Positions 245 to 15,529 of a stretch of DNA of 27,185 bases are shown one piece after another. Under the pieces are notes generated by a model. That model had not been told where the DNA came from. It was given only the letters and a program-made list of their open reading frames with translations, and did not search any database. The position numbers and the translations under genes are program-made. Numbering within the stretch: the first letter of the stretch is position 1; the number at the start of each line of letters is the position of its first letter. Source of the stretch: a virus; the IMG/VR virus record IMGVR_UViG_3300035704_000019, positions 1 to 27,185 of that record; one strand, given 5' to 3'.

Positions 245-250
245 AGCCTA
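245..250 (-). promoter_or_regulatory. TAGGCT, -10-like element for leaderless start at 237
   Basis: On the minus strand, TAGGCT is followed by 7 nt (gcgctcc) and then the ATG at 237-235. Its TAG is also the stop codon of the upstream 58-aa gene. No -35 hexamer is evident. Part of a set of seven identical arrangements. Confidence 0.55.
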
Positions 251-424
251 GCGCCGAGTCGATCGACTGCGCGTCTCAGCGCCACGCCAGTCCGATTTGC
301 GGGTCGAGCGGTTGTGCGCCCACTTCTTCGCCGCCTTCGGTACGACGGCCCACATGAAGCGGCGCTGGCGCTCAGACTTGAACTTGCCGCCGCCGTGCTT
401 GCGCTGACGCGATCGCCTGGCCAT
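248..424 (-). CDS. small basic phage protein, 58 aa (KFKSERQRR type)
   Basis: Leftward ORF whose N-terminus, MARRSRQRKHGGGKFKSERQ, continues into RRFMWAVVPKAAKKWAHN. The 'F-K-S-E-R-Q-R-R-(aromatic)' followed by 'P-x-x-A-x-K-W' pattern is common in short phage proteins of unknown function (from memory of the family). It is very rich in Arg and Lys and might bind nucleic acid, which is inference. The start at 424 is chosen over the longer frame from 586 because the extra 54 residues are Gly/Ala-rich and unlike a protein core, and because TACTAT stands exactly 7 nt upstream of this ATG. It is the first gene of the leftward group. Confidence 0.65.
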   Translation of the reverse strand: MARRSRQRKHGGGKFKSERQRRFMWAVVPKAAKKWAHNRSTRKSDWRGAETRSRSTRR

Positions 425-431
425 CAGCTGA

Positions 432-437
432 ATAGTA
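432..437 (-). promoter_or_regulatory. TACTAT, -10-like element for leaderless start at 424
   Basis: On the minus strand, TACTAT is followed by 7 nt (tcagctg) and then the ATG at 424-422. There is no Shine-Dalgarno sequence, so transcription would begin at or next to the start codon. No matching -35 hexamer is visible. Confidence 0.6.
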
Positions 438-739
438 GCGCCGCCGGCTCCCCACCCCGAGAAGCCGGCGGCGCTTGACTCGATCCCCCGATCGAGGCGC
501 TGCAGCCTATCCGTCCAGCGGCCGTCGCCGCCACCCGGCAGGCTAGGGGCGCCGTCGCCGCTGCCCGCCGCGCTGCCCGCCGTCACCCGGGCGCTGCGTG
601 GGCGGGCCCAGCCTAGCGCCTCCTGGATAGCCCCTTCCGCCTGCGCCTGCGCCTCCGCGCGGGCGCGCGCGCGAGGTATCCGTTATCCGAGGGGCAATTC
701 GATACGTGCCTTGCAGGGCTTTCGTTGGATAGGGGGTGA

Positions 740-757
740 TTATCCACGCTATCCACA
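740..757 (+). promoter_or_regulatory. two abutting DnaA-box-like 9-mers
   Basis: TTATCCACG (740-748) is immediately followed by CTATCCACA (749-757); each differs from the DnaA-box consensus TTATCCACA at one position. A reversed near-match, TGTGGATAC, lies at 852-860 across the start of the next gene, and shorter TATCC copies lie at 677-681, 684-688 and (reversed) 727-731. They could be DnaA boxes or a repressor operator. Confidence 0.4.
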
Positions 758-839
758 GCTGGGGGCGACCGCAGGGATGCCTGTGCGCCTGACGAGCGCG
801 CCCGCGCCGCGCCGCCGCGGGCGACACGAGAGGCGCGAG

Positions 840-845
840 TACGAT
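840..845 (+). promoter_or_regulatory. TACGAT, -10-like element for leaderless start at 853
   Basis: TACGAT is followed by 7 nt (ccccgct) and the GTG at 853. No Shine-Dalgarno sequence is present. It would drive the terminase transcript. Confidence 0.6.
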
Positions 846-852
846 CCCCGCT

Positions 853-1095
853 GTGGATACGACGCAGGTAGGGCTGGCAGCCGCGCGACTGATGGACGAG
901 CTCGCCGAGGGGTTGCCCGAGGGCGCCGAGCTCCGGCACGTGACCCTTGTCGCGGTGTGCGATCTGCCTGACATCGAGGACGGCCTCAGCGAGTCGGTCT
1001 ACCTCGCTTCGACGACCGAGTCGCGCCTTGAGCAGGTCGGCTCCCTCAGCACCGCGGCGTCGATGGCGATGCACGCGCCAATCGACGAGGAGTGA
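853..1095 (+). CDS. hypothetical protein upstream of terminase, 80 aa
   Basis: Acidic 80-aa protein from a GTG start (MDTTQVGLAAARLMDELAEG). The N-terminal half should form an amphipathic helix; the middle (HVTLVAVCDLPDIED) looks like a beta strand and loop. It sits directly before the large terminase and its TGA overlaps the terminase ATG (TGATG). A small terminase subunit is often found here, but I see no helix-turn-helix DNA-binding domain and the protein is short, so that role is not assigned. Start choice: TACGAT lies exactly 7 nt upstream of the GTG, matching other leaderless starts in the window. Function unknown. Confidence 0.7.
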   Translation: MDTTQVGLAAARLMDELAEGLPEGAELRHVTLVAVCDLPDIEDGLSESVYLASTTESRLEQVGSLSTAASMAMHAPIDEE

Positions 1096-2927
1096 TGGAG
1101 GTCGCCACCGTCGAGGGGCTGGTGCTGCCGACCGGCGCCGGCGAGCTCTGGCATCCCGAGACGCCGACGGGGCTCGACGTCGACGAGGTCCTCGACCTCT
1201 CCGACGTCGACGCGCAGGTCCTCGCCCTTTGGCACGCCGAAGTCGCCGGCGACGTTGCGGCGCGCCCGTTCTGGCCGGCGGCGATTCGCTGCCTGACGCT
1301 GGAGCAGCGAATGACGATGGCCTCGGATCCCATGCTCTCCGCGGCGTGGAAGGAGCGCGAGCGCCGGCGGGTTCGAGAAGGCGCGTGGTCACCCGGCGGC
1401 GAGGAGCTCGTGATGTCCGGGCTTGAGTACTTCGTTCGCGGCTACGGGCACGTCCAGCCCGAGCACGGACCGCCGATCCCGTTCACGCTCTGGCAGGAGC
1501 AGGCCGACGTGCTGCGGACGATGGAAGAGGCGCTTCGTGTGATCGTGCTGAAGGCGCGCCAGCTCGGCCTGACCTGGTTGGCGCTCCATCACGCGTTTCA
1601 CATGCTTGCCTTCGATCCGGTGACGCCGGTGGCGAAAATCCTGGCGCTCTCCAAGAAGGCCGAGGACGCGAAGAAACTGCTGCAGCGGGCTCGGCGGATC
1701 AACGAGCTCTTGCCGCCCTATCTGCGGGTCGAGGAGGAGAGCGAGACGAAAGGGTCGCTCTCGAAATTCGGCTTGCTCGACCGAGGCGAAATGGTCTCGC
1801 TCACCTCCAACCCCGAGGATGCTCGATCGGAGACGGCGAGCTACGTGATCTGGGACGAGGCCGCCTTCACCCGCAACGGCGGCGCGGCGGAAACGCTGAC
1901 GGCACTGCGCGCGACGCTCGGCACGCGCGGCCGGCTCTGCGTGATCTCGACCGGCAACGGGCCCGCCGAGGCGCCCGGCGACGGGCAGACCTACGCGCAG
2001 CTGTGGAAGAACGCGAAAGCCGGCGCCTCGGACCTGGTCCCGATCTTCCTGGCCGACTCGGTGCATCCTGGCCGTACCGAGACCTGGCGTAAGAGCGAGC
2101 GGCGTAACTACCTGTCTGAGGAGGACTTCCTCAAGGAGCACCCCGAGACCGAGGACGACGCCTTCTCCGTCGTCGGCGGCCTGCGGGTCTACTCGCCGGC
2201 GGGGATCAACGCGGCGGAGAAGCTCGGCCGGGAGTACGACGCGCTGCTGGCGTGCGGCGAGCTGCCGTTGCCAGAAGAGATCTTCAGCGGCGGCGACTTC
2301 GGCGAGTTCACGCACATGCTGGTCGCTTGGCCGTTGGAGGGCGGCGGCTGGTACATACCGCCGGGCGAGGTGGCGCCCGAGGTGCCGCAGGAGGTCGGTG
2401 AATCGGCGCGGCAGTTCTGCGAGTCGATTCGCGAGGTGCAGGAGGCTGCTTGCTCGAACGGGCAGGCGCCGGACGACGGCAAGCTGGCCCCGCTGATGCG
2501 CGTCTTTCGCTACGACGCAGCTGGCATCCAGAGCAAACGCACCTTCGTCAAAACGGTGCAGTCCGATCGCGAGCTGATGCGCTCATGGCAGATCGCCCGC
2601 CGCGGTGGCAAGGATCAGATCCGCACTTCGAAGATCGCCTTCGGGAAGTACAAGGACGACACGAAGGACCATCTGCGGATGCTCTTCGCGCGCTCGGCGA
2701 AGACGATGCTGACGCGCCTCGGCGACCTCTCCGAAGACGACGAGAACTACTGCGATGGGACGCGGATCATCGCGATCAGCCCGCAGAACGAGACGCTGCT
2801 GCGGCAGCTTCGCGGCCTCAAGCTGAAAGACGACGGCACGGGGCGGATCGAGAAGGGCGACGATCACGGGCCCGACGCGCTGATTGCCGTCGATGCTCCG
2901 CTCGCCGTGAAAGAGCATGATCGCTGA
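1095..2927 (+). CDS. terL: terminase large subunit (TerL)
   Basis: A 610-aa packaging motor. The N-terminal ATPase half has the variant Walker A typical of phage terminases, LKARQLGLTW (about residues 152-161), a Walker B with catalytic Glu, YVIWDEAAF (Asp and Glu near 254-255), and a coupling motif VISTGNG near 283-289. The C-terminal RNase H-fold nuclease half has GGDFGEF (Asp near 401), RYDAAG (Asp near 474) and HGPDALIAV (Asp near 594), which fit the three metal-binding carboxylates. It cuts concatemeric DNA and pumps it through the portal using ATP. The first ~120 residues are an extension of unclear role. The ATG at 1095 overlaps the previous stop; a GTG at 1092 in the same frame is the alternative. 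It is the anchor gene of the late operon. Confidence 0.95.
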   Translation: MEVATVEGLVLPTGAGELWHPETPTGLDVDEVLDLSDVDAQVLALWHAEVAGDVAARPFWPAAIRCLTLEQRMTMASDPMLSAAWKERERRRVREGAWSPGGEELVMSGLEYFVRGYGHVQPEHGPPIPFTLWQEQADVLRTMEEALRVIVLKARQLGLTWLALHHAFHMLAFDPVTPVAKILALSKKAEDAKKLLQRARRINELLPPYLRVEEESETKGSLSKFGLLDRGEMVSLTSNPEDARSETASYVIWDEAAFTRNGGAAETLTALRATLGTRGRLCVISTGNGPAEAPGDGQTYAQLWKNAKAGASDLVPIFLADSVHPGRTETWRKSERRNYLSEEDFLKEHPETEDDAFSVVGGLRVYSPAGINAAEKLGREYDALLACGELPLPEEIFSGGDFGEFTHMLVAWPLEGGGWYIPPGEVAPEVPQEVGESARQFCESIREVQEAACSNGQAPDDGKLAPLMRVFRYDAAGIQSKRTFVKTVQSDRELMRSWQIARRGGKDQIRTSKIAFGKYKDDTKDHLRMLFARSAKTMLTRLGDLSEDDENYCDGTRIIAISPQNETLLRQLRGLKLKDDGTGRIEKGDDHGPDALIAVDAPLAVKEHDR

Positions 2928-3032
2928 GGGTTAGCCCGGCGGCGATGACTGTCGGGGGTGAGTCCCGGTGTCCGTCGCCGTCGGACCCTGCCTGACACCG
3001 CGTCGCGGTAGCACGGCCGACCGGATTCCCTC

Positions 3033-3071
3033 GCGAGCAGTGTAGTACCTTGGTGCTCGCTGTTTGCACCA
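3033..3071 (+). promoter_or_regulatory. two overlapping, mutually exclusive hairpins upstream of the 83-aa gene
   Basis: In the 190-nt gap after terL, GCGAGCA (3033-3039) pairs perfectly with TGCTCGC (3054-3060). TGGTGC (3051-3056), which overlaps that second arm, pairs perfectly with GCACCA (3066-3071). Only one stem can form at a time. No U-run follows either stem, so a simple terminator is not clear. The rest of 2928-3117 holds no convincing ORF. Confidence 0.4.
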
Positions 3072-3104
3072 TAGAGCGCCGCCGGCGACTCCGGGCTCTG
3101 AGGC

Positions 3105-3110
3105 GAGGAG
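3105..3110 (+). promoter_or_regulatory. Shine-Dalgarno GAGGAG deciding the start at 3118
   Basis: GAGGAG ends 7 nt before the ATG at 3118, ideal spacing. It favours this start over a TTG at 3064 that would add 18 residues. Confidence 0.65.
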
Positions 3111-3117
3111 AGCTTGC

Positions 3118-3369
3118 ATGGATCCGCGAAGTGGCGAGGTGTTTGGCCCGCTCGGCGATAATGAGGCGGGCGAGGAGTTGACGAAGGAGAAGCTGCTTGC
3201 CGAGATGGGTCAGATCAAGGATCGGTCGGACAAGCGCTTGACGGAGCTCCAGCGGGCGGCTGATCACGTCGAGGTGCACGGCCCGCTCGTTGCCGTCGAC
3301 GGCGAGGTCGTTCAGCGGTTGCGGCTCGGCGATCGCGAGCTCCGTCGACGTCGGCGCCGCGGTCGCTAG
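3118..3369 (+). CDS. hypothetical protein, 83 aa, helical with Arg-rich C-terminus
   Basis: Starts MDPRSGEVFGPLGDNEAGEE, followed by a charged, probably helical segment (LTKEKLLAEMGQIKDRSDKRLTE in outline), and ends in a run of Arg. The start has a well-spaced GAGGAG. It lies between terminase and the HELLE protein and has non-coding structured DNA on both sides. I recognise no family. The Arg-rich tail (last ~8 residues) could reflect loss of the original C-terminus by a frame change, since the coding pattern weakens after about codon 60. Confidence 0.5.
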   Translation: MDPRSGEVFGPLGDNEAGEELTKEKLLAEMGQIKDRSDKRLTELQRAADHVEVHGPLVAVDGEVVQRLRLGDRELRRRRRRGR

Positions 3370-3378
3370 GATGCTCTC

Positions 3379-3471
3379 CGCGAAGAGTGGCATTGCGGGA
3401 AAGCGGCGACGGCACGCCGCCGGGCAAGCACGGAATTGGACCCCCCGCCGCGATCTCGGCCACTCTTCGCG
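3379..3471. repeat. nested inverted repeat (13-bp outer arms), 93 nt
   Basis: CGCGAAGAGTGGC (3379-3391) and GCCACTCTTCGCG (3459-3471) are perfect inverted copies. Inside are TTGC/GCAA (3393-3396 with 3424-3427) and GCGGCG/CGCCGC (3403-3408 with 3415-3420). The element fills most of the gap between the 83-aa gene and the HELLE gene and stops 15 nt before that gene's -10-like box. A terminator, a small structured RNA or a protein-binding palindrome would fit. Confidence 0.55.
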
Positions 3472-3486
3472 TTAGGACCGAGGTGC

Positions 3487-3492
3487 TACTCT
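3487..3492 (+). promoter_or_regulatory. TACTCT, -10-like element for leaderless start at 3500
   Basis: TACTCT is followed by 7 nt (gctcgcc) and GTG at 3500. It is preceded by TGC, as in an extended -10 element. No Shine-Dalgarno sequence at usual distance. Confidence 0.6.
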
Positions 3493-3499
3493 GCTCGCC

Positions 3500-4258
3500 G
3501 TGCGGATCAGGGTGCAGATCGTCAACGAATCGGCGGAGCTCGCCGACGTGCTCGGCTCTCGCATCACGGCGGCGCTGCAGCATCAGGTCGACCACGACTT
3601 CCGCCCCACGTGGGGGGTCGCGGCCGAGCTGGAGTATGTCGCCCGCGACGACAAACCCGACCCCGAGGCATGGTGGCTCGTCGTCCTCGACGACTCCGAC
3701 CAAGCCGAGGCGCTCGGCTATCACGACTTGACGCCGAAGGTGCTCCATCCGATCGGCAAGGCGTTCGCGAAGACGACGATCGCCGACGGTGCCGAGCTCT
3801 CGGTGACGATCGGGCACGAGCTGCTGGAGATGCTCGGCAACCCCTACCTCGGCGATTGCGTGATCGACCCGCGCACTGGGCGCGTCTACGCGAAGGAGAA
3901 CTGCGACGCCGTCGAGGCGGACCAGTTCGCCTATCCGATCAACGGGATCCTCGTTTCCGACTTCGTGCTGCCGCAGTTCTTCGATCCCCGTCATCGCGGC
4001 AAGGGGATCCCGCTTTCGTTCAAGGGCAACGTGCACGAGCCATTCGAGATCGCGACGGGCGGCTACCTCTCCTATCTCAATCTCGACGCTCTGGGCGAAG
4101 GCTGGCAGCAGGCGCTCGGGATGAACTCCGAGGCGGTCGAAACCTCTCGCGGCGTTCGTTCGTCGGGCTGGCCGCGGGGGTCGCGTCGCGATCGCATTCG
4201 CCGTGCCGCCGCCGGCGAGCTCGTGATCTCCGAAGACTCAGTCTGCGCGCCGCGCTGA
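3500..4258 (+). CDS. putative zincin-like metalloprotease with HELLE motif
   Basis: 252-aa protein. Residues 104-113 read TIGHELLEML, a HExx-type zinc motif in which the usual second His is Glu (H106, E107, E110). It is followed by a conserved-looking segment, ENCDAVEADQFAYPINGILV near 133-152, then SDFVLPQFF. Phage proteins with a HELLE(M/V)L core and a following C-D-x-V-E segment recur in actinobacterial and proteobacterial phages; I know of no proven function. A peptidase acting on the cell wall or on a virion precursor is inference, encouraged by the adjacent endolysin. The last ~35 residues are Arg-rich and may be an extension. It ends in TGATG overlap with the amidase gene, so the two are translated together. 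The start is set by the 7-nt-spaced TACTCT. Confidence 0.6.
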   Translation: MRIRVQIVNESAELADVLGSRITAALQHQVDHDFRPTWGVAAELEYVARDDKPDPEAWWLVVLDDSDQAEALGYHDLTPKVLHPIGKAFAKTTIADGAELSVTIGHELLEMLGNPYLGDCVIDPRTGRVYAKENCDAVEADQFAYPINGILVSDFVLPQFFDPRHRGKGIPLSFKGNVHEPFEIATGGYLSYLNLDALGEGWQQALGMNSEAVETSRGVRSSGWPRGSRRDRIRRAAAGELVISEDSVCAPR

Positions 4259-4863
4259 TGGCGCGACGGACCAAGTCGAACCCCCATCGCCATCACCGGC
4301 CGCGCCGCCGTCCGCGCGTCGCGCCGAAGGTTGTCGTTCGTCATCGCAGCCCCAACTGCTACCCCGATGGCATGGAGCGTCCCCTGCTGATCCCCCTGCA
4401 CGACACCGAGGGGCAGAACAAGTTCAAGTCGATCGAGGATCTGGAGGGGCTCGGCAACTTCTTTGCAGAGCCTTCGACCGAAGCGGCTTCGCAGGCAGCT
4501 GTCGACGGCGACGGCTGGTCTGCGCGCTTCGTAGCTGACAGGGACGCCGCTTGGCATGTCGCCGACTTCAACCGCGTCTCACTCGGGATCGAGCAGATCG
4601 GTTTCGCCTCGCAGGGCAAGTGGACGCGAGCCGAGCGGCGCGAGGCAGCGCGCTGGGTCGCCCAGTGGTCGCACGAGCATGGGATCCCGATCCGTCACGG
4701 CAAGGTCTCTGGCTCGATGGTTGTTCGCTCCGGCGTCGTCCGTCACTCCGACCTCGGCGCCGCCGGCGGCGGCCACAGTGACCCCGGGCCCAACTACAAC
4801 GTCAAGTCGGTCATCCGCTGGGCACGTCTCTTCAAGGCGTTGCGCTACGGCCGGGTCCGATAG
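4258..4863 (+). CDS. N-acetylmuramoyl-L-alanine amidase (amidase_2 / PGRP fold), endolysin
   Basis: 201-aa zinc amidase expected to cut the bond between N-acetylmuramic acid and L-Ala in peptidoglycan at lysis. Visible landmarks: LIPLHDTEG (H48, first zinc ligand), AAWHVADFNRVSLGIEQIG (100-115, with E112 in the position usual for substrate activation), VRHSDLG (H163, second ligand) and GGHSDPGPNYN (D175, third ligand in the DPGP motif). The first ~40 residues are basic and of low complexity, possibly a wall- or membrane-targeting tail; there is no signal peptide and no separate binding domain. The ATG overlaps the previous TGA by one base. Finding an endolysin between terminase and portal is uncommon but known in actinobacteriophages. 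No holin is apparent next to it. Confidence 0.9.
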   Translation: MARRTKSNPHRHHRPRRRPRVAPKVVVRHRSPNCYPDGMERPLLIPLHDTEGQNKFKSIEDLEGLGNFFAEPSTEAASQAAVDGDGWSARFVADRDAAWHVADFNRVSLGIEQIGFASQGKWTRAERREAARWVAQWSHEHGIPIRHGKVSGSMVVRSGVVRHSDLGAAGGGHSDPGPNYNVKSVIRWARLFKALRYGRVR

Positions 4864-4871
4864 GCCCGCGC

Positions 4872-4877
4872 TAGGCT
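4872..4877 (+). promoter_or_regulatory. TAGGCT, -10-like element for leaderless start at 4885
   Basis: TAGGCT is followed by 7 nt (tgcgcgc) and GTG at 4885. It is flanked by an imperfect palindrome, GCCCGCGC before and GCGCGTGGGC after. Confidence 0.6.
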
Positions 4878-4884
4878 TGCGCGC

Positions 4885-5274
4885 GTGGGCAGCGACGTGA
4901 GCGAGACGATCGAGGCGCCGGCGGGTCCGCTTCGCGCCCTGGTCGACGCTCTCAGTCGCGGTCGCCCGCTCTTCTGGACCGGCGAGGTCCTGGTCGAGGT
5001 CGACGTCGACTTCCCGGCTGGTGTCGGGCAGGCGACGATGGTGCTCGATGCTGACGACATGGCAGCACTGCGCGGCGCGATCGAGCAGCGTTGCCGCCAG
5101 TGCGGGTGCGCCGAGAGCAACGCCTGCGTGCTGATGATCGAAGGCTGCGCCGCGCACGGCTGCCGCTGGGTCGAGCAGGACCTCTGCAGTGCGTGTGTTC
5201 CGGGCGCCTCTCCCGACTGGCGGCGCCCTGCGAAAGTGGCTGAGCTGCAGCACCCGGGCAGGACGGCCGCATAG
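4885..5274 (+). CDS. Cys-rich putative zinc-binding protein, 129 aa
   Basis: The N-terminal half (1-60) is acidic and beta-rich. The C-terminal half has eight Cys: CRQCGC (70, 73, 75), AC (81), GC (88), GC (93) and LCSAC (101, 104), with W95 between. The pattern C-x2-C-G-C ... A-C ... C-x-W-x-E-x-D-L-C-S-x-C is one I associate with small phage proteins that probably bind zinc, of unknown role. It is located immediately before the portal gene and its TAG overlaps the portal GTG by one base, so the two are translationally coupled. The start is supported by the 7-nt-spaced TAGGCT. Confidence 0.7.
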   Translation: MGSDVSETIEAPAGPLRALVDALSRGRPLFWTGEVLVEVDVDFPAGVGQATMVLDADDMAALRGAIEQRCRQCGCAESNACVLMIEGCAAHGCRWVEQDLCSACVPGASPDWRRPAKVAELQHPGRTAA

Positions 5275-6824
5275 TGGGCGTCTGGATCGACAAGCTGGTC
5301 GAGCAGCTCGACCGTCATCAGGTTTGGCCCGCGGGTCGCTTCAAGCGGATCGGCGAAGACGTCGGGCTCTGGATCGCGTTCCGTGAGACCGACCGAGGTC
5401 GGCTGAAGCAGGACATCGGCTGGCAGGACGCACAGCGGCTCTACCAGGTCGACCCGCTGGCGCCGAAGATCTCCGATGCCTTCGCGTCACTGCTCTTCGG
5501 TCGCCGCCCCGACGTCAAACCGGCGGCAACCGGTGACACGAAGCGTCTCGACGAGGTGGTCGAAGAAAACGGCTTCCCCGCCAACCTGCAGCGCGCGGTG
5601 CGGACCTCGTCCAGCGAGGGCGAGGTTTGGTGGCGAATTCGAGCCGATCCTGAGCTCGCCGATGCCCCGCTGGTCGAGTGGTATTCGCGCACCGCCGTCT
5701 ACCCGCTGTGGGTCGGGCCTCGACTGGCGGCGGTCGCGTTCATCTCGCGCTATGACACCGAAGGCGACGACGGTCGGCCGAATGCCACCGTCTTTCGCCA
5801 CTTCGAGATCCACGAACGCGGCGAAGCGCAGAACATTCTCTACGAGGGCAGCAAGGGCACGCTCGGCAAGCAGGTCGGCCTTGATCGTTTCAGCGAGACG
5901 GCGGATCTGGACGAGGTATGGGAGCACAACCTGCCGGCAATGCTGGCCGGACGGATTCCTAACACTGAGGGCGTCGACTCGACGCTCGGCGTCTCCGACT
6001 ACTACCGGATCAAGGATCTCCTGCACGACGTCAACGAGGCGCTGACGATCGGCGCCGAAAACGCACGGCTGACGTTGAAGCAGCGGATGATCGCGCCGGC
6101 GTCGGCGTTCGACGCGGAGGGCAACCTGCGCGACGTCGATGTCTGGGCCGCCGAGTCGTTGGACAACGAGGACCTCTCCGACGAACAGCGCGGCGCTCCG
6201 TTCCGCGTGCTGGAGTACACCTTCGAAGCGGAACGCTTGCTGAACTGGCGCCGCGGTCTCGCCGAAGATGCGTTCGGTCGGATCGGGATCGTGCCGCAGT
6301 TCGTCGGCGCCGGCAATGCCGCGGAAGGGCTCGCCCAGTCGGGCACCGCGCTCCGCGTGCGGCTGATCCCGACCACGGCCGCCGGTGAGGAGCGCGGTCA
6401 GTTCTGGGACGACAAACGCGGAGGGCTGCCCGGGATCCTCACGGTGATGCAGATGGTCGACGCGCTTCCTCGCGACGAGGGTGGTTTCGGCGTCAGCTGG
6501 GGCGACGCTGAGACGCCGCCGTCGGTCGAACGGGGCTCGACGCTTCCCGAGGACGAGAACGAAGTCGTCGATCGCAACGCCGCGGCCGTGCAGGGGCAGA
6601 TCCGCAGCCGCCGCGTTGCCGTAGAAGAGCAGCATCCCGATTGGTCAGACGACGAAGTCGACGAAGAGCTTGAGCGCATCAGACGCGATGTGGCAGACTC
6701 ACAGCCGTTGACCGGATTTCTTCACGACCAGGGAGGCGGCGTCGGCAACGGCGTCACCCCCGACGCCGGCGGCAGTGATGGCGCCGGCGGTGAAGAAGAA
6801 GGTCCACCGGCCGAGACCAGCTAG
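5274..6824 (+). CDS. portal protein
   Basis: 516-aa protein that should form the dodecameric ring at one capsid vertex through which DNA enters and leaves. The N-terminal third has the typical portal pattern of an entry helix and 'L-Y-Q-V-D-P-L-A-P-K-I-S-D-A-F-A-S-L-L-F-G' near 55-75. A beta-rich wing follows (EWYSRTAVYPLWVGPRLAAV, about 139-158). Near 245-270 is the stem/clip helix region with DLLHDVNEALTIGAENARLT. Around 345-385 lies the long helix with SGTALRVRLIP, and the C-terminus is acidic and disordered (DVADSQPLTGF onward, Gly/Glu-rich). The length fits SPP1 gp6-like portals. The order terminase - portal - scaffold - capsid supports the call. The GTG start overlaps the previous stop. 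Confidence 0.9.
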   Translation: MGVWIDKLVEQLDRHQVWPAGRFKRIGEDVGLWIAFRETDRGRLKQDIGWQDAQRLYQVDPLAPKISDAFASLLFGRRPDVKPAATGDTKRLDEVVEENGFPANLQRAVRTSSSEGEVWWRIRADPELADAPLVEWYSRTAVYPLWVGPRLAAVAFISRYDTEGDDGRPNATVFRHFEIHERGEAQNILYEGSKGTLGKQVGLDRFSETADLDEVWEHNLPAMLAGRIPNTEGVDSTLGVSDYYRIKDLLHDVNEALTIGAENARLTLKQRMIAPASAFDAEGNLRDVDVWAAESLDNEDLSDEQRGAPFRVLEYTFEAERLLNWRRGLAEDAFGRIGIVPQFVGAGNAAEGLAQSGTALRVRLIPTTAAGEERGQFWDDKRGGLPGILTVMQMVDALPRDEGGFGVSWGDAETPPSVERGSTLPEDENEVVDRNAAAVQGQIRSRRVAVEEQHPDWSDDEVDEELERIRRDVADSQPLTGFLHDQGGGVGNGVTPDAGGSDGAGGEEEGPPAETS

Positions 6825-6866
6825 GCCGCCGCGGTAGGACGCGGCTTTACAAATTACCGCTGGCTA

Positions 6867-6883
6867 GCCCTGACCGGCAGGGC
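6867..6883 (+). other. 6-bp hairpin in the portal-scaffold gap
   Basis: GCCCTG (6867-6872) and CAGGGC (6878-6883) pair with a 5-nt loop in the 118-nt gap after the portal gene. No U-run follows, so termination is uncertain. The AT-rich TTTACAAATTACC just upstream (from 6845) could be promoter-like but has no matching downstream box. Confidence 0.35.
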
Positions 6884-7849: not shown

Positions 7850-8800
7850 ATGGCACTAACGCTTGCCGAAGCGGCAAAACTGAGTGACAACGACCTGCAG
7901 CGCGGGGTCATCGAGACGTTTGTGATGGAAGAGGAGTCGGTCATCCTCGATCGCATCCCCTTCCTGGAGGTAACGGGCAACGCCTACGCCTACAACGAAG
8001 AGGCGTCGCTGCCTGGGGTCGAGTTCCGCGCCGTCAACGCCGGCTACACCGAGTCGACGGGGACGGTCAACCAGAAGACGGAGAAGCTCGTGATCATGGG
8101 AGGGGACGCCGATGTCGACGTCTTCATCCAGAAAACGCGCTCGAACCTCAACGACCAGCGGGCCACGCAGGAGCGGATGAAGGTCAAGGCCGCGACCTTC
8201 AAGTTCCAGGACACGTTCATCAACGGGAACGTCGAAGTCGACGCGAACTCGTTCGATGGGCTCAAGAAGCGGCTGACCGGCGCGCAAGTCATCAGCGCCG
8301 GGACCAACGGCGCCGAAATCGTCGGCACCGAAGAAAACACCCGGTTCGCGTTCTACGAACTCCTCGACCAGCTGTGCGCGGCGGTCGTCGGGGGGCCGGA
8401 CGCGCTCTACATGAACAAATTCATCCTCGCTCGGATCAAATCGGCCGCCCGCCGCACCGGCCACTACGAAACGACCCGGGACGAGTTCGGGAAGACGATC
8501 GAGATGTTCAACGGGATTCCCCTGCGGGACATCGGCAACAAGGCCGACGGGACGTTGATCATTCCGCAGACGGAGACCAAAGGCACGTCCTCGACGTGCT
8601 CTTCGATCTACGCCGTGCGGTTCGGCGAAGACGACGGCGATCGTGCCGTCACGGGGCTGATCGGCGAAAGCGGGGTCGACGTGCGTGACCTCGGCGAGAT
8701 CACCGAAAAGCCCGTCTTCCGCACCCGGATCGAAATGTTCACCGGCCTGGCCGTGTTCGGCCCCGGCGCTGCGCGGCTCGAAGGGGTGCTCAACAAATAG
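7850..8800 (+). CDS. major capsid protein (HK97 fold, inferred)
   Basis: 316-aa protein following the scaffold gene. The N-terminus, MALTLAEAAKLSDNDLQRGV then ETFVMEEESVILDRIPF, matches the N-arm and first helix of short HK97-like capsid proteins without a protease-cleaved delta domain. The middle has a long charged spine helix (NDQRATQERMKVKAATF-like, about 101-118) and an A-domain segment ending GTLIIPQTETKGTSSTCSSI. The C-terminus, FTGLAVFGPGAARLEGVLNK, is the closing strand typical of the family. No separate protease gene is visible, which fits a protein-scaffolded procapsid. The gene should be the most highly expressed in the window. The fold call rests on context and overall pattern, not on an alignment. 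Confidence 0.85.
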   Translation: MALTLAEAAKLSDNDLQRGVIETFVMEEESVILDRIPFLEVTGNAYAYNEEASLPGVEFRAVNAGYTESTGTVNQKTEKLVIMGGDADVDVFIQKTRSNLNDQRATQERMKVKAATFKFQDTFINGNVEVDANSFDGLKKRLTGAQVISAGTNGAEIVGTEENTRFAFYELLDQLCAAVVGGPDALYMNKFILARIKSAARRTGHYETTRDEFGKTIEMFNGIPLRDIGNKADGTLIIPQTETKGTSSTCSSIYAVRFGEDDGDRAVTGLIGESGVDVRDLGEITEKPVFRTRIEMFTGLAVFGPGAARLEGVLNK

Positions 8801-8840
8801 ATCGAAGCCGTCGATAGGCGGCGCGACAGAGAAAAGGACT

Positions 8841-9739: not shown

Positions 9740-9745
9740 CAGTAG

Positions 9746-9781
9746 GCGCCTCCAGGTCGTATGCTGCCGGCCTGGAGGCGC
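9746..9781 (+). promoter_or_regulatory. 11-bp perfect hairpin sequestering GGAGG upstream of 9788
   Basis: GCGCCTCCAGG (9746-9756) pairs perfectly with CCTGGAGGCGC (9771-9781) around a 14-nt loop. The GGAGG that would serve the ATG at 9788 is inside the 3' arm. The loop contains TATGCT (9760-9765), a -10-like hexamer. Possible roles: terminator after the 154-aa gene, translational switch, or palindromic operator around a promoter. Confidence 0.5.
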
Positions 9782-9787
9782 TCTCCT

Positions 9788-10264
9788 ATGCCAGATCACG
9801 ACTTCACCATTCTCAGAGTTCGCAAGCTCGCTGATCGGAGTGTCGAGCGGCTGAGGCGCGTTGACCCCGAGAGCGGCGATACCTACCTGATCAACCCGGA
9901 CACTGGGGCGCGGGAAGGCTACCCACTCGCCGGCGTTCGCTTCGAGGACGGGCCGCCGGCGAAGACCAGCGTCTCGCAGAACTGGCTGCTGAGCGCTGAG
10001 GGCGAGGGCTGGGCCGAGCTCTTCGCCAAGCAGACCGTGATGCGGACGCAGGGGCCGCCCGATGCGCCGGTCTCGCCCGACAATCCGCCGCACGTCTTCG
10101 TGCAGGCCAGCGAGGTCCTCTTTCACACCGTCGACGGCGACTTCCGCTACACGGTTACTCGCAGCCCCGACAAGTGGCCGGACGAGAAAGACGAGGAGGC
10201 CGAGCTCGAACCGGGGTTCGGCGGAGAGGTCTCCTGGATCTTCGAGCTGGAGCTGCAGGGCTGA
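9788..10264 (+). CDS. hypothetical virion-module protein, 158 aa
   Basis: Begins MPDHDFTILRVRKLADRSVE. Mixed beta-rich protein with VDPESGDTYLINPDTG near 27-42, SQNWLLSAEGEGWAELF near 64-80, a hydrophobic strand FVQASEVLFHTVDGDFRYTV near 102-121, and an acidic linker before a terminal strand (SWIFELELQG). No known motif. Start chosen at the ATG preceded by GGAGG (9775-9779, about 8 nt upstream) over an in-frame ATG at 9761 inside the hairpin loop. It ends in TGATG overlap with the next gene, so the two probably belong together. By position, a capsid decoration or head accessory role is possible; this is inference. Confidence 0.6.
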   Translation: MPDHDFTILRVRKLADRSVERLRRVDPESGDTYLINPDTGAREGYPLAGVRFEDGPPAKTSVSQNWLLSAEGEGWAELFAKQTVMRTQGPPDAPVSPDNPPHVFVQASEVLFHTVDGDFRYTVTRSPDKWPDEKDEEAELEPGFGGEVSWIFELELQG

Positions 10265-10743
10265 TGGCGAACTTCGTCCACAATCGCGCCAAAGGTCGCC
10301 TCACTGAGTGGGCCGAGAGGATCAACGCGAACGACCCGACGAACAGCGTTTTCCTGATCGCCCTGATCGCCTCGACCGGGGTCGAGTCCGATGCGGTGCT
10401 GACCGACAAGGACGATTGGGCTGGGCTGGTCGAAGGCGCGACGAACTTCGCGACCAACACGGGGTCGACGAGGAAGACGCTCGACCAGGCCGGCGGGATC
10501 ACGATCACCTACGACGACACGAACGACCGCGTCGACGTCGACGTCCCCGATCAGACCTGGACCGCGGTGGCAAACGACGGCACCGGTGGCATCAGCGACG
10601 TCGCGTTTGGGTTCGACACTGACTCGACCAGCGGTACCGATTCGAGCGTTCTTCCTGGCACCTTCCACGACTTCGCCGTGACCCCGGACGGGTCGGACAT
10701 CACGGCGAAAATCGCGGAACTCGGGTTCTTCCGAGCGTCCTAG
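10264..10743 (+). CDS. putative virion structural protein, 159 aa
   Basis: Begins MANFVHNRAKGRLTEWAERI, followed by FLIALIASTGVESDAVLTD, then DDTNDRVDVDVPDQTW and VAFGFDTDSTSGTDSS. The order 'F-x-N-R-A-K-G ... D-x-A-L-x-D-x-D-x ... D-D-T-N-x-R-V-x-V-D-x-P-D-x-T-W ... TPDGSDITAKI' is one I recognise as a frequent small structural protein in actinobacteriophage head modules, without an assigned role. It is probably a beta-sandwich. The ATG overlaps the preceding TGA; the stop lies 15 nt before the repeat-bearing protein. Capsid decoration is a reasonable guess. Confidence 0.65.
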   Translation: MANFVHNRAKGRLTEWAERINANDPTNSVFLIALIASTGVESDAVLTDKDDWAGLVEGATNFATNTGSTRKTLDQAGGITITYDDTNDRVDVDVPDQTWTAVANDGTGGISDVAFGFDTDSTSGTDSSVLPGTFHDFAVTPDGSDITAKIAELGFFRAS

Positions 10744-10758
10744 ACGGCGAGGGCGCCT

Positions 10759-12423
10759 GTGGCCCTCAGTCGAACCGTCATCGGGATCTACAGCAAACTC
10801 AACGCGGGCACGCCCGCGTTCACGACGGAAGAATTCACGCCGCCGGCGAACTCGCTCCTGGTTGTGCGCGTCTACCTCATGCGGAAAGAAGGGGAATCTG
10901 AAATCGGGACGCCGGCGGTTTCGGGCGGCGGCCTCGTCTGGACTAATCGGGGCGCGAACACGACCTTGAAACCGGCCTGGTCGACGAAAGCGGTGTGGTT
11001 CACCGCGCCTGTTGGGGGCTCGCCGGCGAAAATGGCAGTCACGGTCGACGATGCGAACAACCTCAATATCTACGAATACATCGTCTCGGTCATCGCCTAC
11101 ACCGGCTATGACACGACCACGCCGATCGGCGGGATCGTCAGCAGCGGGGCGACCAACATCGGCGATGGAGAAGAGTCGCGAGAACTCAGTGAAGCGCCGG
11201 GGGTCGCGGACGAGACGCTTGTCTGCATCGACGTAGACGCGACGAAAGCGCCGCCGGCCCCTTCGCTCGAAACTGGATGGGCGATCGTCCATGAAAAATC
11301 AGCCTCGGGGGAAAGCGGCATTGCGGTCGCGAGTCGAGGTGCTTCGACCTCGAAAGTAGTCAAAGTCAAAGACGTCTATGTCGGCGGCGGAACGCTATTC
11401 AAGGCGGGACTGGGCGCGATGGTGGTCCGTGCGGCTGCCGGTGCCAAAGTCGTCGAAGTAGGAAGGGCGACCGATACGAGCACCGCTCGCGCTATCTCCT
11501 CTGCGAAGACGCTGCAGGTAGTTCGCGCCGCAGAGGTCGACGTTGCTCGACCGATCGCCGCGGTGAAGGTGGCAGCGGTGCTCAGGGCGACCGAGGTCGA
11601 CTCGGCAAGGCCCTTGGCCTCCGCCAAGGGGAAGCTCGTGGATCGCGCTGCTGAGGTTGACTTCGCGCACGCGATCGCCGCGGTGAAGACGACGACCGTT
11701 GACAGGGCGTCAGAGGCCGACCTCGCTCGTGCGCTTATGGAGACCAAAGCGGCCGCGGTGGGGAGGGCCAGCGAGGGTGATCTTGCGAGGCCTCTTAGCT
11801 CCTTGAAGGTCGCTGCGCTCGCTAGAGCCACGGAGATCGACGTTGCCCGCGGACTCAGCGTCGGTAGGGCGTTTACCCTCAATCGCGCGGTCGAGGTCGA
11901 CCAGGCGCGTTCGGTTGGCTCGCGCAAGGCTCTGGCGCTGGGTCGTGCCGTCGAGGTCGACCAGGCGCGGGCGATCGAGCTATTGCATGGCCTCGAAGTG
12001 GCACGCGCGGTCGAGGCCGACGCCGCCGGCGGGATCTCGAAGGCGAAGGTCGCGCAGATTGCACGGGCGGTCGAGATCGACGTTGCGACGGTCGTCAGGC
12101 CGCTGAAGCTGGTCGCCGTCCTGCCGGCGATCGAGGTCGACTCGGCGGCTTCGATCGAAACCCCTCTTCCGCCAACGCCGGCGCTGGCGCGGCCGCTGGG
12201 TGCGATCTGCCTCTCAGCTGAGTCGACCGGCGCAGTGCTTGTCGAGCTCGCAGAGCGCGGTGCGCTCTGCCTTTCGGCCGAGCCAACGGCCGCGATCGCC
12301 GTCGTGGTTACCGAGAACGGCGCCGTAGCGATCGTCCCCGAGCAGGCGGGGGCGCTATCCCTTGGCGCTGAGTCGACGGGCGCGCTGCAGCTGGTCCGGG
12401 TCCGAGGCGCGCGGCTGCTCTAG
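10759..12423 (+). CDS. virion-associated repeat protein (N-terminal beta domain + 20-residue tandem repeats)
   Basis: 554-aa protein from a GTG with GCGAGGG upstream. Residues 1-~230 form a beta-rich domain with lectin/Ig-like character (FTPPANSLLVVRVYLM near 27-42; KAVWFTAPVGGSPAKMAVTV near 81-100). Residues 232-471 are twelve 20-residue units with consensus R-A-x-E-V-D-x-A-R-x-I-x-x-x-K. Residues 481-550 carry a second repeat, GA(I/L)CLSAE(S/T)TGA..., also of 20-residue period. There is no signal peptide or membrane segment. Located among head accessory genes, it may be a long decoration fibre or surface adhesin; this is inference. I recall similar R-A-x-E-x-D repeats in phage and prophage virion proteins but cannot check. 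Confidence 0.75.
   Translation: MALSRTVIGIYSKLNAGTPAFTTEEFTPPANSLLVVRVYLMRKEGESEIGTPAVSGGGLVWTNRGANTTLKPAWSTKAVWFTAPVGGSPAKMAVTVDDANNLNIYEYIVSVIAYTGYDTTTPIGGIVSSGATNIGDGEESRELSEAPGVADETLVCIDVDATKAPPAPSLETGWAIVHEKSASGESGIAVASRGASTSKVVKVKDVYVGGGTLFKAGLGAMVVRAAAGAKVVEVGRATDTSTARAISSAKTLQVVRAAEVDVARPIAAVKVAAVLRATEVDSARPLASAKGKLVDRAAEVDFAHAIAAVKTTTVDRASEADLARALMETKAAAVGRASEGDLARPLSSLKVAALARATEIDVARGLSVGRAFTLNRAVEVDQARSVGSRKALALGRAVEVDQARAIELLHGLEVARAVEADAAGGISKAKVAQIARAVEIDVATVVRPLKLVAVLPAIEVDSAASIETPLPPTPALARPLGAICLSAESTGAVLVELAERGALCLSAEPTAAIAVVVTENGAVAIVPEQAGALSLGAESTGALQLVRVRGARLL
11452..12171 (+). repeat. 12 tandem 60-bp coding repeats
   Basis: Twelve in-frame 60-nt units in perfect phase (unit starts at 11452, 11512, 11572 and so on to 12112). 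Most have diverged at the DNA level but keep R-A-x-E-V-D-x-A-R. Units starting at 11872 and 11932 share a near-identical stretch, gtcgaggtcgaccaggcgcg, suggesting a more recent duplication. The first and last units are the most degenerate. Confidence 0.85.
12199..12408 (+). repeat. second coding repeat, three and a half 20-codon units
   Basis: Units begin at 12199, 12259, 12319 (only 10 codons) and 12349, with the shared core G-A-(I/L)-(C/S)-L-(S/G)-A-E-(S/P)-T. The half unit (GAVAIVPEQA) suggests an internal deletion of 30 nt. Confidence 0.7.
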
Positions 12424-12448
12424 CCCCGCGTGGTAGCTTCCTGCGGGG
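12424..12448 (+). promoter_or_regulatory. palindrome enclosing TAGCTT before 12449
   Basis: CCCCGC (12424-12429) and GCGGGG (12443-12448) form a perfect 6-bp stem filling the whole gap between two genes. The loop contains TAGCTT (12434-12439), 9 nt from the ATG. It may be a weaker variant of the leaderless promoter or a hairpin covering the start. Confidence 0.35.
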
Positions 12449-12862
12449 ATGGCCGAGGTTGAACCGTTCCTGATCAAGCAGGGCGATACCGCTCCAAGCT
12501 ATGCGGTCGTCTTGACCAGCGGCGACAAATACGTCGCCCTCGGTGACGACGAAGGCAACCCGATCGCCGACAAAGTTAGGTTCCTCATGCGAGGAGAGGA
12601 CGTCGAAGATCCTTCGGCTCCGGCCGTCACCGGCGAAATGACCTTCTCGCTGGAGAAAATCCCGGACCCGAAAAACCCAACCGGGCCCGAAATCGAAGTC
12701 TGGGTTTGCGTCTATGACTGGCAGCCGGGGGACACCGAACAGGAACCTGGGATCTACAACACCGAGCATGAGGTGACCTGGAAATCGGGCAAGGTCGAGA
12801 CGTTCCCCGCCCAGCAGGAGGATCCCTATTTGAGGGTGCTGATCTTGGAGGACCTCGGGTGA
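12449..12862 (+). CDS. BppU N-terminal-like virion protein, 137 aa
   Basis: Begins MAEVEPFLIKQGDTAPSYAV, with KVRFLMRGEDVEDPSAPAVT near 42-61, a strand EVWVCVYDWQPGD near 82-94, GIYNTEHEVTWKSGKVETFP near 100-119, and a closing strand YLRVLILEDLG. The order 'I-K-x-G-D-T-x-P-x ... V-R-F-x-M-R ... Y-D-W-x-x-x-D-T ... G-x-Y-x-x-E-x-x-V-T-W-x-x-G-K-x-x-T-F-P' is that of the immunoglobulin-like N-terminal domain of phage baseplate upper proteins (BppU_N). As a stand-alone protein in a head module it may be a decoration protein. It follows the repeat protein and may be its partner. Confidence 0.7.
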   Translation: MAEVEPFLIKQGDTAPSYAVVLTSGDKYVALGDDEGNPIADKVRFLMRGEDVEDPSAPAVTGEMTFSLEKIPDPKNPTGPEIEVWVCVYDWQPGDTEQEPGIYNTEHEVTWKSGKVETFPAQQEDPYLRVLILEDLG

Positions 12863-12895
12863 GGCTCGGTCGGCTCAGCTCGATCAAGGAAGACG

Positions 12896-13423
12896 TTGAG
12901 CTCCATCGTCTTCACCGAAGCGGAGCTCGGCCACCGTCGAAGCGTAGGCCGCCGGCGGTCGTCGGCGACGCTGGCAGTCGACGACAAGCGAGCCCGGGCG
13001 GTCGTCGTGCCTGACCCCGCCGCTTACGCGACGGTGGCCGACTTCGAGGATTATGTCGAGGGCTGGGCCACTGACGACGAAGATGTCCTCAAGCGCACGC
13101 TGCACCGTGCCAGTCGGGACGTCGATCGCTTTGTTGGTCCTTGCTGGTCGATGGAGAGCAACGGTCTTCGGTTTGGTGACTTGACCGAAAACCCGAAGAA
13201 GCTCTCCGACGAACAGCGGGCGGCGCTGGTCGCCGCTACGTGCGCGCAGGCCGAGTACCGGATCGAAAAGGGCGAGGATTGGTTTGTGCACGACCAGTAC
13301 AAGCAGACGAACGGGCCCGACTTCGCCACGGTGGGGAGGCTTAATCGGTTCGGGCCGAAGGCTCGCGAGGAGCTCCGGTATAGCGGCCTCTCCAGGGCGC
13401 AGGGCGGAAGGCTCGTCCGCTGA
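12896..13423 (+). CDS. head-tail connector (adaptor, gp6/gp15-like)
   Basis: 175 aa from a TTG start with AGGA 5 nt upstream; a GTG at 13007 would give a 138-aa core that begins just before the recognisable domain. The core, YATVADFEDYVEGWATDDED near 43-62 followed by LKRTLHRASRDVDRFVG, is the all-helical adaptor fold that binds under the portal. The later segment DEQRAALVAATCAQAEYRIE and the terminal SGLSRAQGGRLVR fit the family. The first ~37 residues are Arg-rich and unlike the family, so the true start may be 13007. It stands directly upstream of the closure-like gene and overlaps it by 4 nt, as adaptors usually do. Confidence 0.75.
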   Translation: MSSIVFTEAELGHRRSVGRRRSSATLAVDDKRARAVVVPDPAAYATVADFEDYVEGWATDDEDVLKRTLHRASRDVDRFVGPCWSMESNGLRFGDLTENPKKLSDEQRAALVAATCAQAEYRIEKGEDWFVHDQYKQTNGPDFATVGRLNRFGPKAREELRYSGLSRAQGGRLVR

Positions 13424-13785
13424 GCCTGTCGCAGAAAAACGCAACCCTGATCGAAGTCAAAGCCGAAGGCACGACGCCGGACTGGGATAGCCCTGACAAC
13501 GACGGGCCGCCGAAGTGGAGGGGTCGAGCTGACGCCTTCTACACGCAGCGTAAGGATCGCAATGTCGGGCCAGGCTCAGGAACGTCGACGGCAGAGACCT
13601 ACGAGCTGCGGCGGCAGCTGATCGTCGAGCCGCGACGTCCAGGCATCGACTTCGAGCAGGGCGACCTGGTCGTCTTCCTGTACCGGGGTACGCAGCGCAG
13701 CGGCGTCATCGTCATCGCCGAGGAGTACGACATTCCGAACACCCTGGTCGCCGGTTCGATCCGGCTCACCCTTCGCGACGCCTGA
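13420..13785 (+). CDS. head closure-like connector protein, CTG start, 121 aa
   Basis: An open frame between adaptor and minor head genes has no ATG, GTG or TTG near its beginning: an in-frame TAG lies at 13381-13383 and the first usable codon is CTG at 13420. That CTG overlaps the adaptor stop (CTGA) and has GGAAGG 8 nt upstream. The protein would begin MSLSQKNATLIEVKAEGTTP, then PPKWRGRADAFYTQRKDRNV, ELRRQLIVEPRRPGIDFEQG and DLVVFLYRGTQRSGVIVIAE: a small beta-barrel pattern expected for stopper/closure proteins that seal the head after packaging. Codon use and frame match its neighbours. The alternative, CTG at 13426, is less well spaced. The product call is by position and pattern. Confidence 0.7.
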   Translation: MSLSQKNATLIEVKAEGTTPDWDSPDNDGPPKWRGRADAFYTQRKDRNVGPGSGTSTAETYELRRQLIVEPRRPGIDFEQGDLVVFLYRGTQRSGVIVIAEEYDIPNTLVAGSIRLTLRDA

Positions 13786-13787
13786 CG

Positions 13788-14657
13788 ATGGCTGCCACGG
13801 GGGCAGAGCGCTCAATCGCTCGGCTCCCCGAGGTCGCGACGGTGGAAATCGTCGCGCAGTACGAACGTGCCGCTCGGTTGCTGCGGTCGATGATCGCCAA
13901 CGCTGTGCGCCGCGGCGCTCTCGGCACCGCAAACGAACAGCGCAAGCAGCTGGCCGCCGTCAATCGGCTCTTGCTGCAGCTGCGAGCAAGTATGAACGGA
14001 CTGGCGACGCTGTCGATCGCGGGTGGGTATCAGATTGGAGCCCAGTCGGCCGACGTTTCCATGCTCGAAGCCCTTCCCCCTGACGTAGCGGAGAAGCTGA
14101 TAGAGCCGCGGTTTGCGAACGGCGCCAACAAGGCGGCGATGCAAGCCCTGCAGGCAGCCACCGAACAGAGGCTGCAGGAGTCGGTCAGGACCGTGGGACG
14201 CTCCGTAGACGACGTCTTTCGCAGGGTCGGTCTGGAGGAAGTCAAGCTCGGCACCGCGGCGGGGCTGACCAGGCGCGAGACCTCGAATCGGATCGTTTCG
14301 AAGCTGGTCGACGAAGGGTTGACGTCCTTCGTCGATCGAGCGGGGCGCCGATGGAAGCTCGACGTCTACGCGGGCATGGTGGCCAGGACCACGCAGCGCG
14401 AGGCTGTGACTCTCGGCGTCGTCGACCGGATGCTGCAGATCGGCCTCGACCTGGTCACGGTTTCAAAGCACGCCGGATCCTGTGACATCTGCAAGGACTA
14501 TGAGGGGAAGACCTACTCGCTGACCGGGCACACCGAGGGGTTCGAGGTGATGACCGTCTTCCCGCCCTTCCACCCGAACTGCCGCCACATGATCGGGGCG
14601 GCCAAGGCGAATCTGACCGAGGTGCTGGAACTCGACGAGATGGCGATCGCGGCGTAG
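13788..14657 (+). CDS. minor head protein (phage minor capsid 2 / MuF-like)
   Basis: 289 aa, mostly helical in the first 190 residues. TRRETSNRIVSKLVDEGLTS (161-180) and YAGMVARTTQREAV (194-207) are the helix pair seen in minor capsid 2/SPP1 gp7-type proteins. A metal-binding C-terminal knot follows: KHAGSCDICKDYEGKTYSL (C232, C235) and FHPNCRHMIG (H262, C265, H267). Such proteins enter the procapsid with the portal and help DNA exit or ejection. They usually follow the portal gene; here the gene lies after the adaptor and closure genes. ATG 2 nt after the previous stop. Confidence 0.8.
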   Translation: MAATGAERSIARLPEVATVEIVAQYERAARLLRSMIANAVRRGALGTANEQRKQLAAVNRLLLQLRASMNGLATLSIAGGYQIGAQSADVSMLEALPPDVAEKLIEPRFANGANKAAMQALQAATEQRLQESVRTVGRSVDDVFRRVGLEEVKLGTAAGLTRRETSNRIVSKLVDEGLTSFVDRAGRRWKLDVYAGMVARTTQREAVTLGVVDRMLQIGLDLVTVSKHAGSCDICKDYEGKTYSLTGHTEGFEVMTVFPPFHPNCRHMIGAAKANLTEVLELDEMAIAA

Positions 14658-14660
14658 CAT
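14655..14660 (+). promoter_or_regulatory. TAGCAT, -10-like element for leaderless start at 14668
   Basis: TAGCAT is followed by 7 nt (cttcggc) and GTG at 14668. Its TAG is the stop codon of the minor head gene. TCGACG at 14632-14637 is one mismatch from a TTGACN -35 at 17-nt spacing, the only -35-like match in the set. Confidence 0.6.
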
Positions 14661-14667
14661 CTTCGGC

Positions 14668-15027
14668 GTGACGATCGTCCGCGGCGAAATCAGCTTCAAC
14701 ACCGTCTACGCGGCTTATCAGCACGAGCACACTGAGCTCAAGCATCCGCGCGGGGGCAACGCGAAGTATCTAGAGGCGCCGCTGAAGCAGTATGCGCCTG
14801 AGCTCGCACCGTTCATCGCGGCGCGGGTTCGAGCGGCGATTAAAGCCGCCGGCGCGCTGTGGTCCGCGGCGGCGATCGCGCGGATCCAGGCCGACGCCGC
14901 CGAGGATGCGATCGGCGCCTTTGCCGAGATCGTCGCCGGCGAGGCTCAGCGACAGGCTCCGATCCTGGAGGGGATCTTGCGCGGCTCGGTCGAGGTTTCC
15001 ACGGGCAGGGTTCGAGAGCTCGGGTAG
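14668..15027 (+). CDS. tail completion / HK97 gp10-like protein, 119 aa
   Basis: Begins MTIVRGEISFNTVYAAYQHE, then HTELKHPRGGNAKYLEAPLK, a helical middle rich in Ala, and a final segment RQAPILEGILRGSVEVSTGR. The 'KYLE-x-P-(L/F) ... A-P-x-x-x-G-x-L-R-x-S-V/I' pattern is that of HK97 gp10-like proteins that complete the tail and join it to the head. Position between minor head protein and tail terminator agrees. GTG start set by the 7-nt-spaced TAGCAT. Confidence 0.7.
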   Translation: MTIVRGEISFNTVYAAYQHEHTELKHPRGGNAKYLEAPLKQYAPELAPFIAARVRAAIKAAGALWSAAAIARIQADAAEDAIGAFAEIVAGEAQRQAPILEGILRGSVEVSTGRVRELG

Positions 15028-15030
15028 CCT
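15025..15030 (+). promoter_or_regulatory. TAGCCT, -10-like element for leaderless start at 15038
   Basis: TAGCCT is followed by 7 nt (cccccgc) and GTG at 15038. Its TAG is the stop codon of the tail completion gene. CGGG and CCCG flank it as a short palindrome. Confidence 0.6.
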
Positions 15031-15037
15031 CCCCCGC

Positions 15038-15529
15038 GTGGACGACCTGGTCCAGCCCTTCATTCGTTCCTACTTGGTCTCGAAGAACGGCGCGCGAGAA
15101 GAAGGAGAGCCGGGTTTCCGGGCGCCGAGTGACGCCGATCCAGACGGTGCCGCGGGCAGCCTCTATCCGGTTTTCGTCGAGCCTCGCGAAGGCGCGCCGG
15201 CGCCGGGGCAGCGGAAGGGCAACGAGGACAACACCGAGGCGGTGCTCTCGCTGGTCTACACCGGCGGGATCCCGACTGGTCCGCTGGAGAGCTTCCACCG
15301 TCGCGAGACCTTCGATCTCTGGGTTCGCTCGAAAGGGCCGCAGCTGGCGAAGCAGATCGACAACCGTCTGTGGAAGCTGCTGCACGACAAGCGCGACTGG
15401 GACATGGACGGCCTAACGGTGATCGAATCGCTGCAGTGGCGGCCAATGCAGCCGCTCGGAAACGACCCGCAGGGCTATACCTACATCGTCTCCTTCATCT
15501 TCGAGCTTTACGCAGAGAGCGGGAATTAG
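15038..15529 (+). CDS. tail terminator protein, 163 aa
   Basis: Begins MDDLVQPFIRSYLVSKNGAR. After an acidic, Gly/Pro-rich insert (about 26-75), the core reads EAVLSLVYTGGIPTGPLESF, RETFDLWVRSKGPQLAKQID, then NRLWKLLHDKRDWDMDGLTV and YTYIVSFIFELY. The alternating strand-helix-helix-strand pattern with a W-x-R-S helix and final aromatic strand is that of tail terminators, which cap the tail tube. Position just before the tube operon agrees. The start is chosen at the GTG with the 7-nt-spaced TAGCCT; an upstream open frame to 14792 is a shadow of the previous gene. Confidence 0.75.
   Translation: MDDLVQPFIRSYLVSKNGAREEGEPGFRAPSDADPDGAAGSLYPVFVEPREGAPAPGQRKGNEDNTEAVLSLVYTGGIPTGPLESFHRRETFDLWVRSKGPQLAKQIDNRLWKLLHDKRDWDMDGLTVIESLQWRPMQPLGNDPQGYTYIVSFIFELYAESGN

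What the first reader, a model, noticed from the sequence alone, without database searches (positions are those of the whole stretch)
245..15040. A repeated TA[C/G]N[A/C]T - exactly 7 nt - RTG start signal at seven genes on both strands
At starts 424(-), 237(-), 853, 3500, 4885, 14668 and 15038 the hexamers are TACTAT, TAGGCT, TACGAT, TACTCT, TAGGCT, TAGCAT and TAGCCT, each followed by exactly 7 nt and then ATG or GTG. All seven lack a Shine-Dalgarno sequence, while many genes without the motif have one or overlap a preceding stop. With roughly 0.2 for each fixed T/A/T base, about 0.2 hits would be expected at 27 starts. TANNNT close to the start codon is the known form of leaderless promoters in actinobacteria. 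No -35 box is shared, so this may be a phage-specific or extended -10 promoter set that makes leaderless late mRNAs and splits the structural region into many transcripts.
Basis: partly seen in the sequence, partly recalled or inferred. Interest (0 to 1): 0.85.

Follow-up and report, generated by a model that had tools for sequence, protein, structure and literature searches.

The report
Leaderless host-type promoters in a phage
Several genes of an uncultured actinobacterial-type phage, some of them in its structural gene block, are preceded at a fixed 7-base distance by the -10 promoter box that actinobacteria use to make messages starting directly at the start codon; the pattern is real and partly conserved, but it is a known kind of signal.

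Summary
TANNNT-N7-RTG occurs 7 times in the window, all at the seven named starts. At 27 gene starts the box lies at 7 nt in 7 cases, and only twice at all other distances 0-60 nt. The peak does not depend on start calls: 7 hits at spacing 7 against a mean of 1.1 at other spacings. In the closest relative (G001, 76% TerL identity) all three alignable box starts keep TANNNT-N7-RTG although bases inside and around the box changed, and an eighth start (12449) keeps it at 9 and 8 nt. Seven more distant phage contigs repeat the spacing-7 peak on other genes (12 vs 2.85 expected). The chromosome of a Solirubrobacterales genome with a related prophage peaks at the same 6-8 nt (27, 30, 10 vs 4.6 background). 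Best reading: ordinary actinobacterial -10 elements read by host RNA polymerase, giving leaderless mRNAs. A phage-specific sigma or extended -10 set is not supported: no sigma domain passes Pfam's cut-off in seven relatives. Leaderless SigA-type promoters were already predicted in cluster O mycobacteriophages. RNA 5' ends were not tested.

The parts
425..437 (-). TACTAT box and 7-nt spacer before ATG of a 58-aa gene (start 424, minus strand)
   Evidence: a 16-bp GC hairpin lies directly upstream (z -4.3)
238..250 (-). TAGGCT box and 7-nt spacer before ATG of a 56-aa ORF (start 237, minus strand)
840..852 (+). TACGAT box and 7-nt spacer before GTG of the 80-aa gene 853-1095
   Evidence: weak SD -2.5 kcal
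3487..3499 (+). TACTCT box (the only one with a TGN extension) and 7-nt spacer before GTG of the 252-aa gene 3500-4258
   Evidence: G001 ortholog TAGGCT-N7-GTG
4872..4884 (+). TAGGCT box and 7-nt spacer before GTG of the 129-aa gene 4885-5274
   Evidence: no homolog found in G001
14655..14667 (+). TAGCAT box and 7-nt spacer before GTG of the 119-aa gene 14668-15027 (weak minor-head match); TAG is also the stop of the minor head gene 13788
   Evidence: G001 keeps TAGCAT-N7-ATG
15025..15037 (+). TAGCCT box and 7-nt spacer before GTG of the tail-terminator-like gene 15038-15529; TAG is also the stop of the preceding gene
   Evidence: weak Pfam hit; G001 keeps TAGCGT-N7-GTG with no ORF ending there
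12434..12448 (+). TAGCTT box, 9 nt before ATG of gene 12449-12862: near-leaderless eighth case
   Evidence: G001 has TAGGTT-N8-ATG
9760..9787 (+). TATGCT box with predicted short leader carrying GGAGG before ATG 9788: leadered use of the same box type
   Evidence: SD -9.3 kcal

Best explanation
The seven sites are ordinary actinobacterial -10 elements (TANNNT) placed so that host RNA polymerase starts transcription on the first base of the start codon. The mRNAs would have no 5' leader and be translated by leaderless initiation. The boxes, spacing, lack of SD and conservation are shown; polymerase use, the transcription start and leaderless translation are inferred from the same signal in actinobacteria. 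The phage appears to use host-type signals, gaining and losing them gene by gene; some sit inside the structural block.
For: Seven of seven window-wide matches lie at gene starts with one spacing. In G001, 3 of 3 alignable box starts keep TANNNT-N7-RTG while internal bases and flanks change; aligned non-box starts do not have it (Fisher 3/3 vs 0/13 P 0.002; the 13 is my own count of aligned non-box starts). At the G001 orthologs of 15038 and 14668 the box stands where no gene, or only a 78-codon open frame antisense to a predicted ORF, ends, so the boxes are not mere stop codons. Relatives show k=7 12 vs 2.85, P 4e-5. The G012 chromosome peaks at k=6-8, P 3e-15 at k=7. TANNNT is 8 times denser between than within genes (Fisher P 2e-10). 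Literature: TANNNT centred 7-12 bp upstream of 73% of primary TSSs in M. tuberculosis with no -35 motif (PMC3898074); TANNNT about 12 bp before starts marks leaderless genes, over 20% of genes in Actinobacteria (PMC3160421).
Against: No RNA 5' ends. The host is not identified: codon usage does not separate candidates, and Streptomyces phage Rowa has an MCP as close (66%) as the Solirubrobacterales prophages (60-62%). The window has only k=7, whereas the G012 chromosome uses 6 and 7 about equally. Eleven Streptomyces loci with a related capsid gene show no peak (20 vs 24 expected at k=6-8) although a Streptomyces chromosome does (25, 35, 17). Four of the seven starts have no usable ortholog in G001. 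In G001 alone the k=7 excess is weak (5 vs 1.8, P 0.04).
Confidence: 0.8

Rival explanations
1. A phage-encoded sigma factor or modified polymerase reads a phage-specific box with exactly 7 nt to the start codon, making a late regulon.
For: All seven boxes are at exactly 7 nt, tighter than the G012 chromosome (27, 30, 10 at 6, 7, 8 nt). Rowa, a relative by capsid, has an annotated RNA polymerase sigma factor.
Against: No sigma-70 region 2 match in seven relatives and only sub-threshold region 4 hits in G007; G001 has none in 70 kb. Relatives mix 6, 7 and 8 nt. The box is the host-type box.
Confidence: 0.05
2. Translational coupling: the TAG is the stop codon of the preceding gene and ribosomes reinitiate 10 nt further on.
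For: True in position for 14668 and 15038 in the window.
Against: Not possible at the other five. In G001 the two orthologs keep the box where the coupling geometry is lost. A stop codon does not fix the last T.
Confidence: 0.05
3. The boxes are promoters, but the mRNAs have a leader of one or more bases, or start sites scatter, so they are short-leadered rather than strictly leaderless.
For: Start distance from -10 varies by a base or two in bacteria; 12449 has 9 nt here and 8 nt in G001, and 9788 looks leadered with an SD.
Against: A sharp peak at 7 with the purine of RTG at the expected start; no SD at these starts.
Confidence: 0.1

Closest known systems
TANNNT-led (leaderless) genes of Actinobacteria and Deinococcus-Thermus (PMC3160421, PMC3898074, PMC12340547)
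   Same: Degenerate TANNNT, about 6-7 nt before the start codon, no -35 consensus, no SD.
   Different: Here in an uncultured phage, partly in its structural block, all at 7 nt; no transcript data.
Predicted leaderless SigA-like promoters PL1, PR2 and PL2 of cluster O mycobacteriophages (PMC4351075)
   Same: Actinobacteriophage promoters with +1 predicted on the first base of the start codon, one of them within the structural operon.
   Different: Three such promoters per genome, found by a -35/-10 search; here seven or eight in 27 kb without a shared -35.

Membership tests
Actinobacterial TANNNT-led leaderless genes | TANNNT box about 6-8 nt before the start codon, above chance | tested here: met
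Actinobacterial TANNNT-led leaderless genes | Same signal and spacing in host-type chromosomes | tested here: met
   G012 27, 30, 10 vs 4.6; Streptomyces 25, 35, 17. The host of this phage itself is unknown
Actinobacterial TANNNT-led leaderless genes | No Shine-Dalgarno at these starts | tested here: met
   at 3500 a GAGG lies too far upstream to serve
Actinobacterial TANNNT-led leaderless genes | No conserved -35 element | tested here: met
   by inspection of column frequencies; small sample
Actinobacterial TANNNT-led leaderless genes | Transcript 5' end on the start codon | not testable with these tools
   no RNA data
Phage-specific sigma regulon | Phage encodes a sigma factor | tested here: inconclusive
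   none over cut-off in seven relatives; the rest of this phage's genome is not in the window, and most relatives are fragments
Extended -10 promoters | TGN directly before the -10 box | tested here: not met
   one of seven (3500), by reading the upstream bases

The most novel reading that the evidence does not exclude
This phage lineage runs part of its structural programme on several separate leaderless mRNAs, which would let those genes be translated by a different initiation route when leadered translation is down, unlike Streptomyces loci with related capsid genes, which show no such peak.
Probability: 0.15. Interest if true: 0.65.

Novelty: new member of a known kind. Interest (0 to 1): 0.33.

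Why it matters
It gives a clear, partly conserved set of predicted leaderless starts in an uncultured phage group, improves start calls (GTG starts without SD; the G001 ortholog of 3500 probably starts 12 nt earlier than the alignment suggests), and shows that the spacing alone can mark likely phage promoters in high-GC actinobacterial viruses.

Tried and rejected
Whole-window shuffles as the main test: weak, replaced by start-anchored and spacing tests. The backwards-pattern control of the genome pattern search: not comparable in composition, not used. A phage sigma factor: not found. Host by codon usage: not decisive. Conservation in distant relatives: orthologs there mostly lack the box, while other genes carry it (TerL in G004, minor head in G003), so only G001 supports per-gene conservation. 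Rfam: no match in the window. A capsid scan of viral contigs found nothing more.

Full report
What the window is. It is a 27,185-base virus record with a tailed-phage structural block: terminase large subunit at 1092, amidase endolysin at 4258, portal at 5274, major capsid at 7850, minor head protein at 13788, a tail-terminator-like gene at 15038, and a very long gene at 18241 that I read as the tape measure from its size and position. The closest relative is G001, a 70,275-base record with 76% identity in TerL. Capsid relatives are phages and prophages of which the closest are from Actinobacteria: Streptomyces phage Rowa 66%, and loci in Streptomyces, Solirubrobacterales and others. The host is not known.

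Observation. TANNNT-N7-RTG has seven matches on both strands, all at the seven listed starts. Counting TANNNT at each distance from 27 starts gives 7 at 7 nt, 1 at 9 nt, 1 at 22 nt and none at the other distances up to 60 nt. Without assuming starts, spacing 7 has 7 hits and other spacings average 1.1. SD pairing is weak at these starts and strong at most others; 3500 shows -6.9 kcal only because of a GAGG lying too far upstream. TANNNT is found 19 times in 1,614 non-coding positions per strand against 37 times in 25,571 coding ones (Fisher P 2e-10).

Conservation. At the G001 orthologs, 14668 has TAGCAT-N7-ATG, 15038 has TAGCGT-N7-GTG, and 3500 has TAGGCT-N7-GTG at an in-frame GTG 12 nt upstream of the aligned start. 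The varying letters are those that are free in TANNNT. In the window the TAG of 14668 and 15038 is also the stop codon of the preceding gene; in G001 no ORF ends at the 15038 box, and a predicted opposite-strand ORF with its own TAGGCT-N6-ATG lies beside the 14668 box, so stop codons alone do not explain them. In more distant relatives other genes carry the box: TerL in G004 and the minor head gene in G003.

Spacing elsewhere. Seven distant relatives together have 12 at k=7 against a background of 2.85 (P 4e-5). A 397-kb sample of G012, a Solirubrobacterales genome with a related portal and capsid, has 27, 30 and 10 at k=6, 7, 8 against 4.6. A 400-kb sample of a Streptomyces chromosome has 25, 35, 17 against roughly 10. 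Eleven Streptomyces loci with a related capsid show no peak. So the box is host-type; whether a phage uses it in this block varies.

Mechanism. Shown: box, spacing, absence of SD, conservation, host-type match. Inferred: host polymerase reads the box and starts on the R of RTG, and leaderless initiation follows, as described for actinobacteria (PMC3898074, PMC3160421). Seven relatives searched for sigma factors give no region 2 match and only sub-threshold region 4 matches in one. Two box sites have strong hairpins just upstream: 16 bp abutting the 424 box (z -4.3) and a long stem ending about 12 nt before the 3500 box (z -2.4). These could end upstream transcripts, but have no U-run and were not tested.

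Known work. Leaderless TANNNT genes are well established in Actinobacteria. Leaderless SigA-like promoters, one inside the structural operon, were predicted in cluster O mycobacteriophages (PMC4351075). I found no report of an array like this in phages in the searches made, which cover open-licence papers only. I file it as a new member of a known kind.

Noticed in passing
window 3367-3476; G001 about 18945-19016 (minus strand): Between gene 3118 and the 3500 box lies a long hairpin with a 13-bp closing stem; G001 has a hairpin of different sequence at the same place (z -2.0 and -2.6). In both a TANNNT box sits about 7 nt before the 5' arm, as if a small structured RNA had its own promoter. 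No Rfam match.
   Followed up: partly
window 438-509, minus strand: TAGGCT box at 509 followed after 7 nt by a perfect 6-bp hairpin, then a 16-bp GC hairpin that abuts the TACTAT box of gene 424.
   Followed up: partly
G001 upstream of 18886 (minus strand): A second TAGGGT-N7-GTG lies about 45 nt upstream of the box of the 3500 ortholog and would open a 14-codon ORF whose TGA overlaps the GTG start, a possible leaderless coupled uORF (sequence).
   Followed up: no
window 480-620, minus strand: Three TAGGCT/TAGCCT boxes in a non-coding stretch without an RTG at 7 nt.
   Followed up: no
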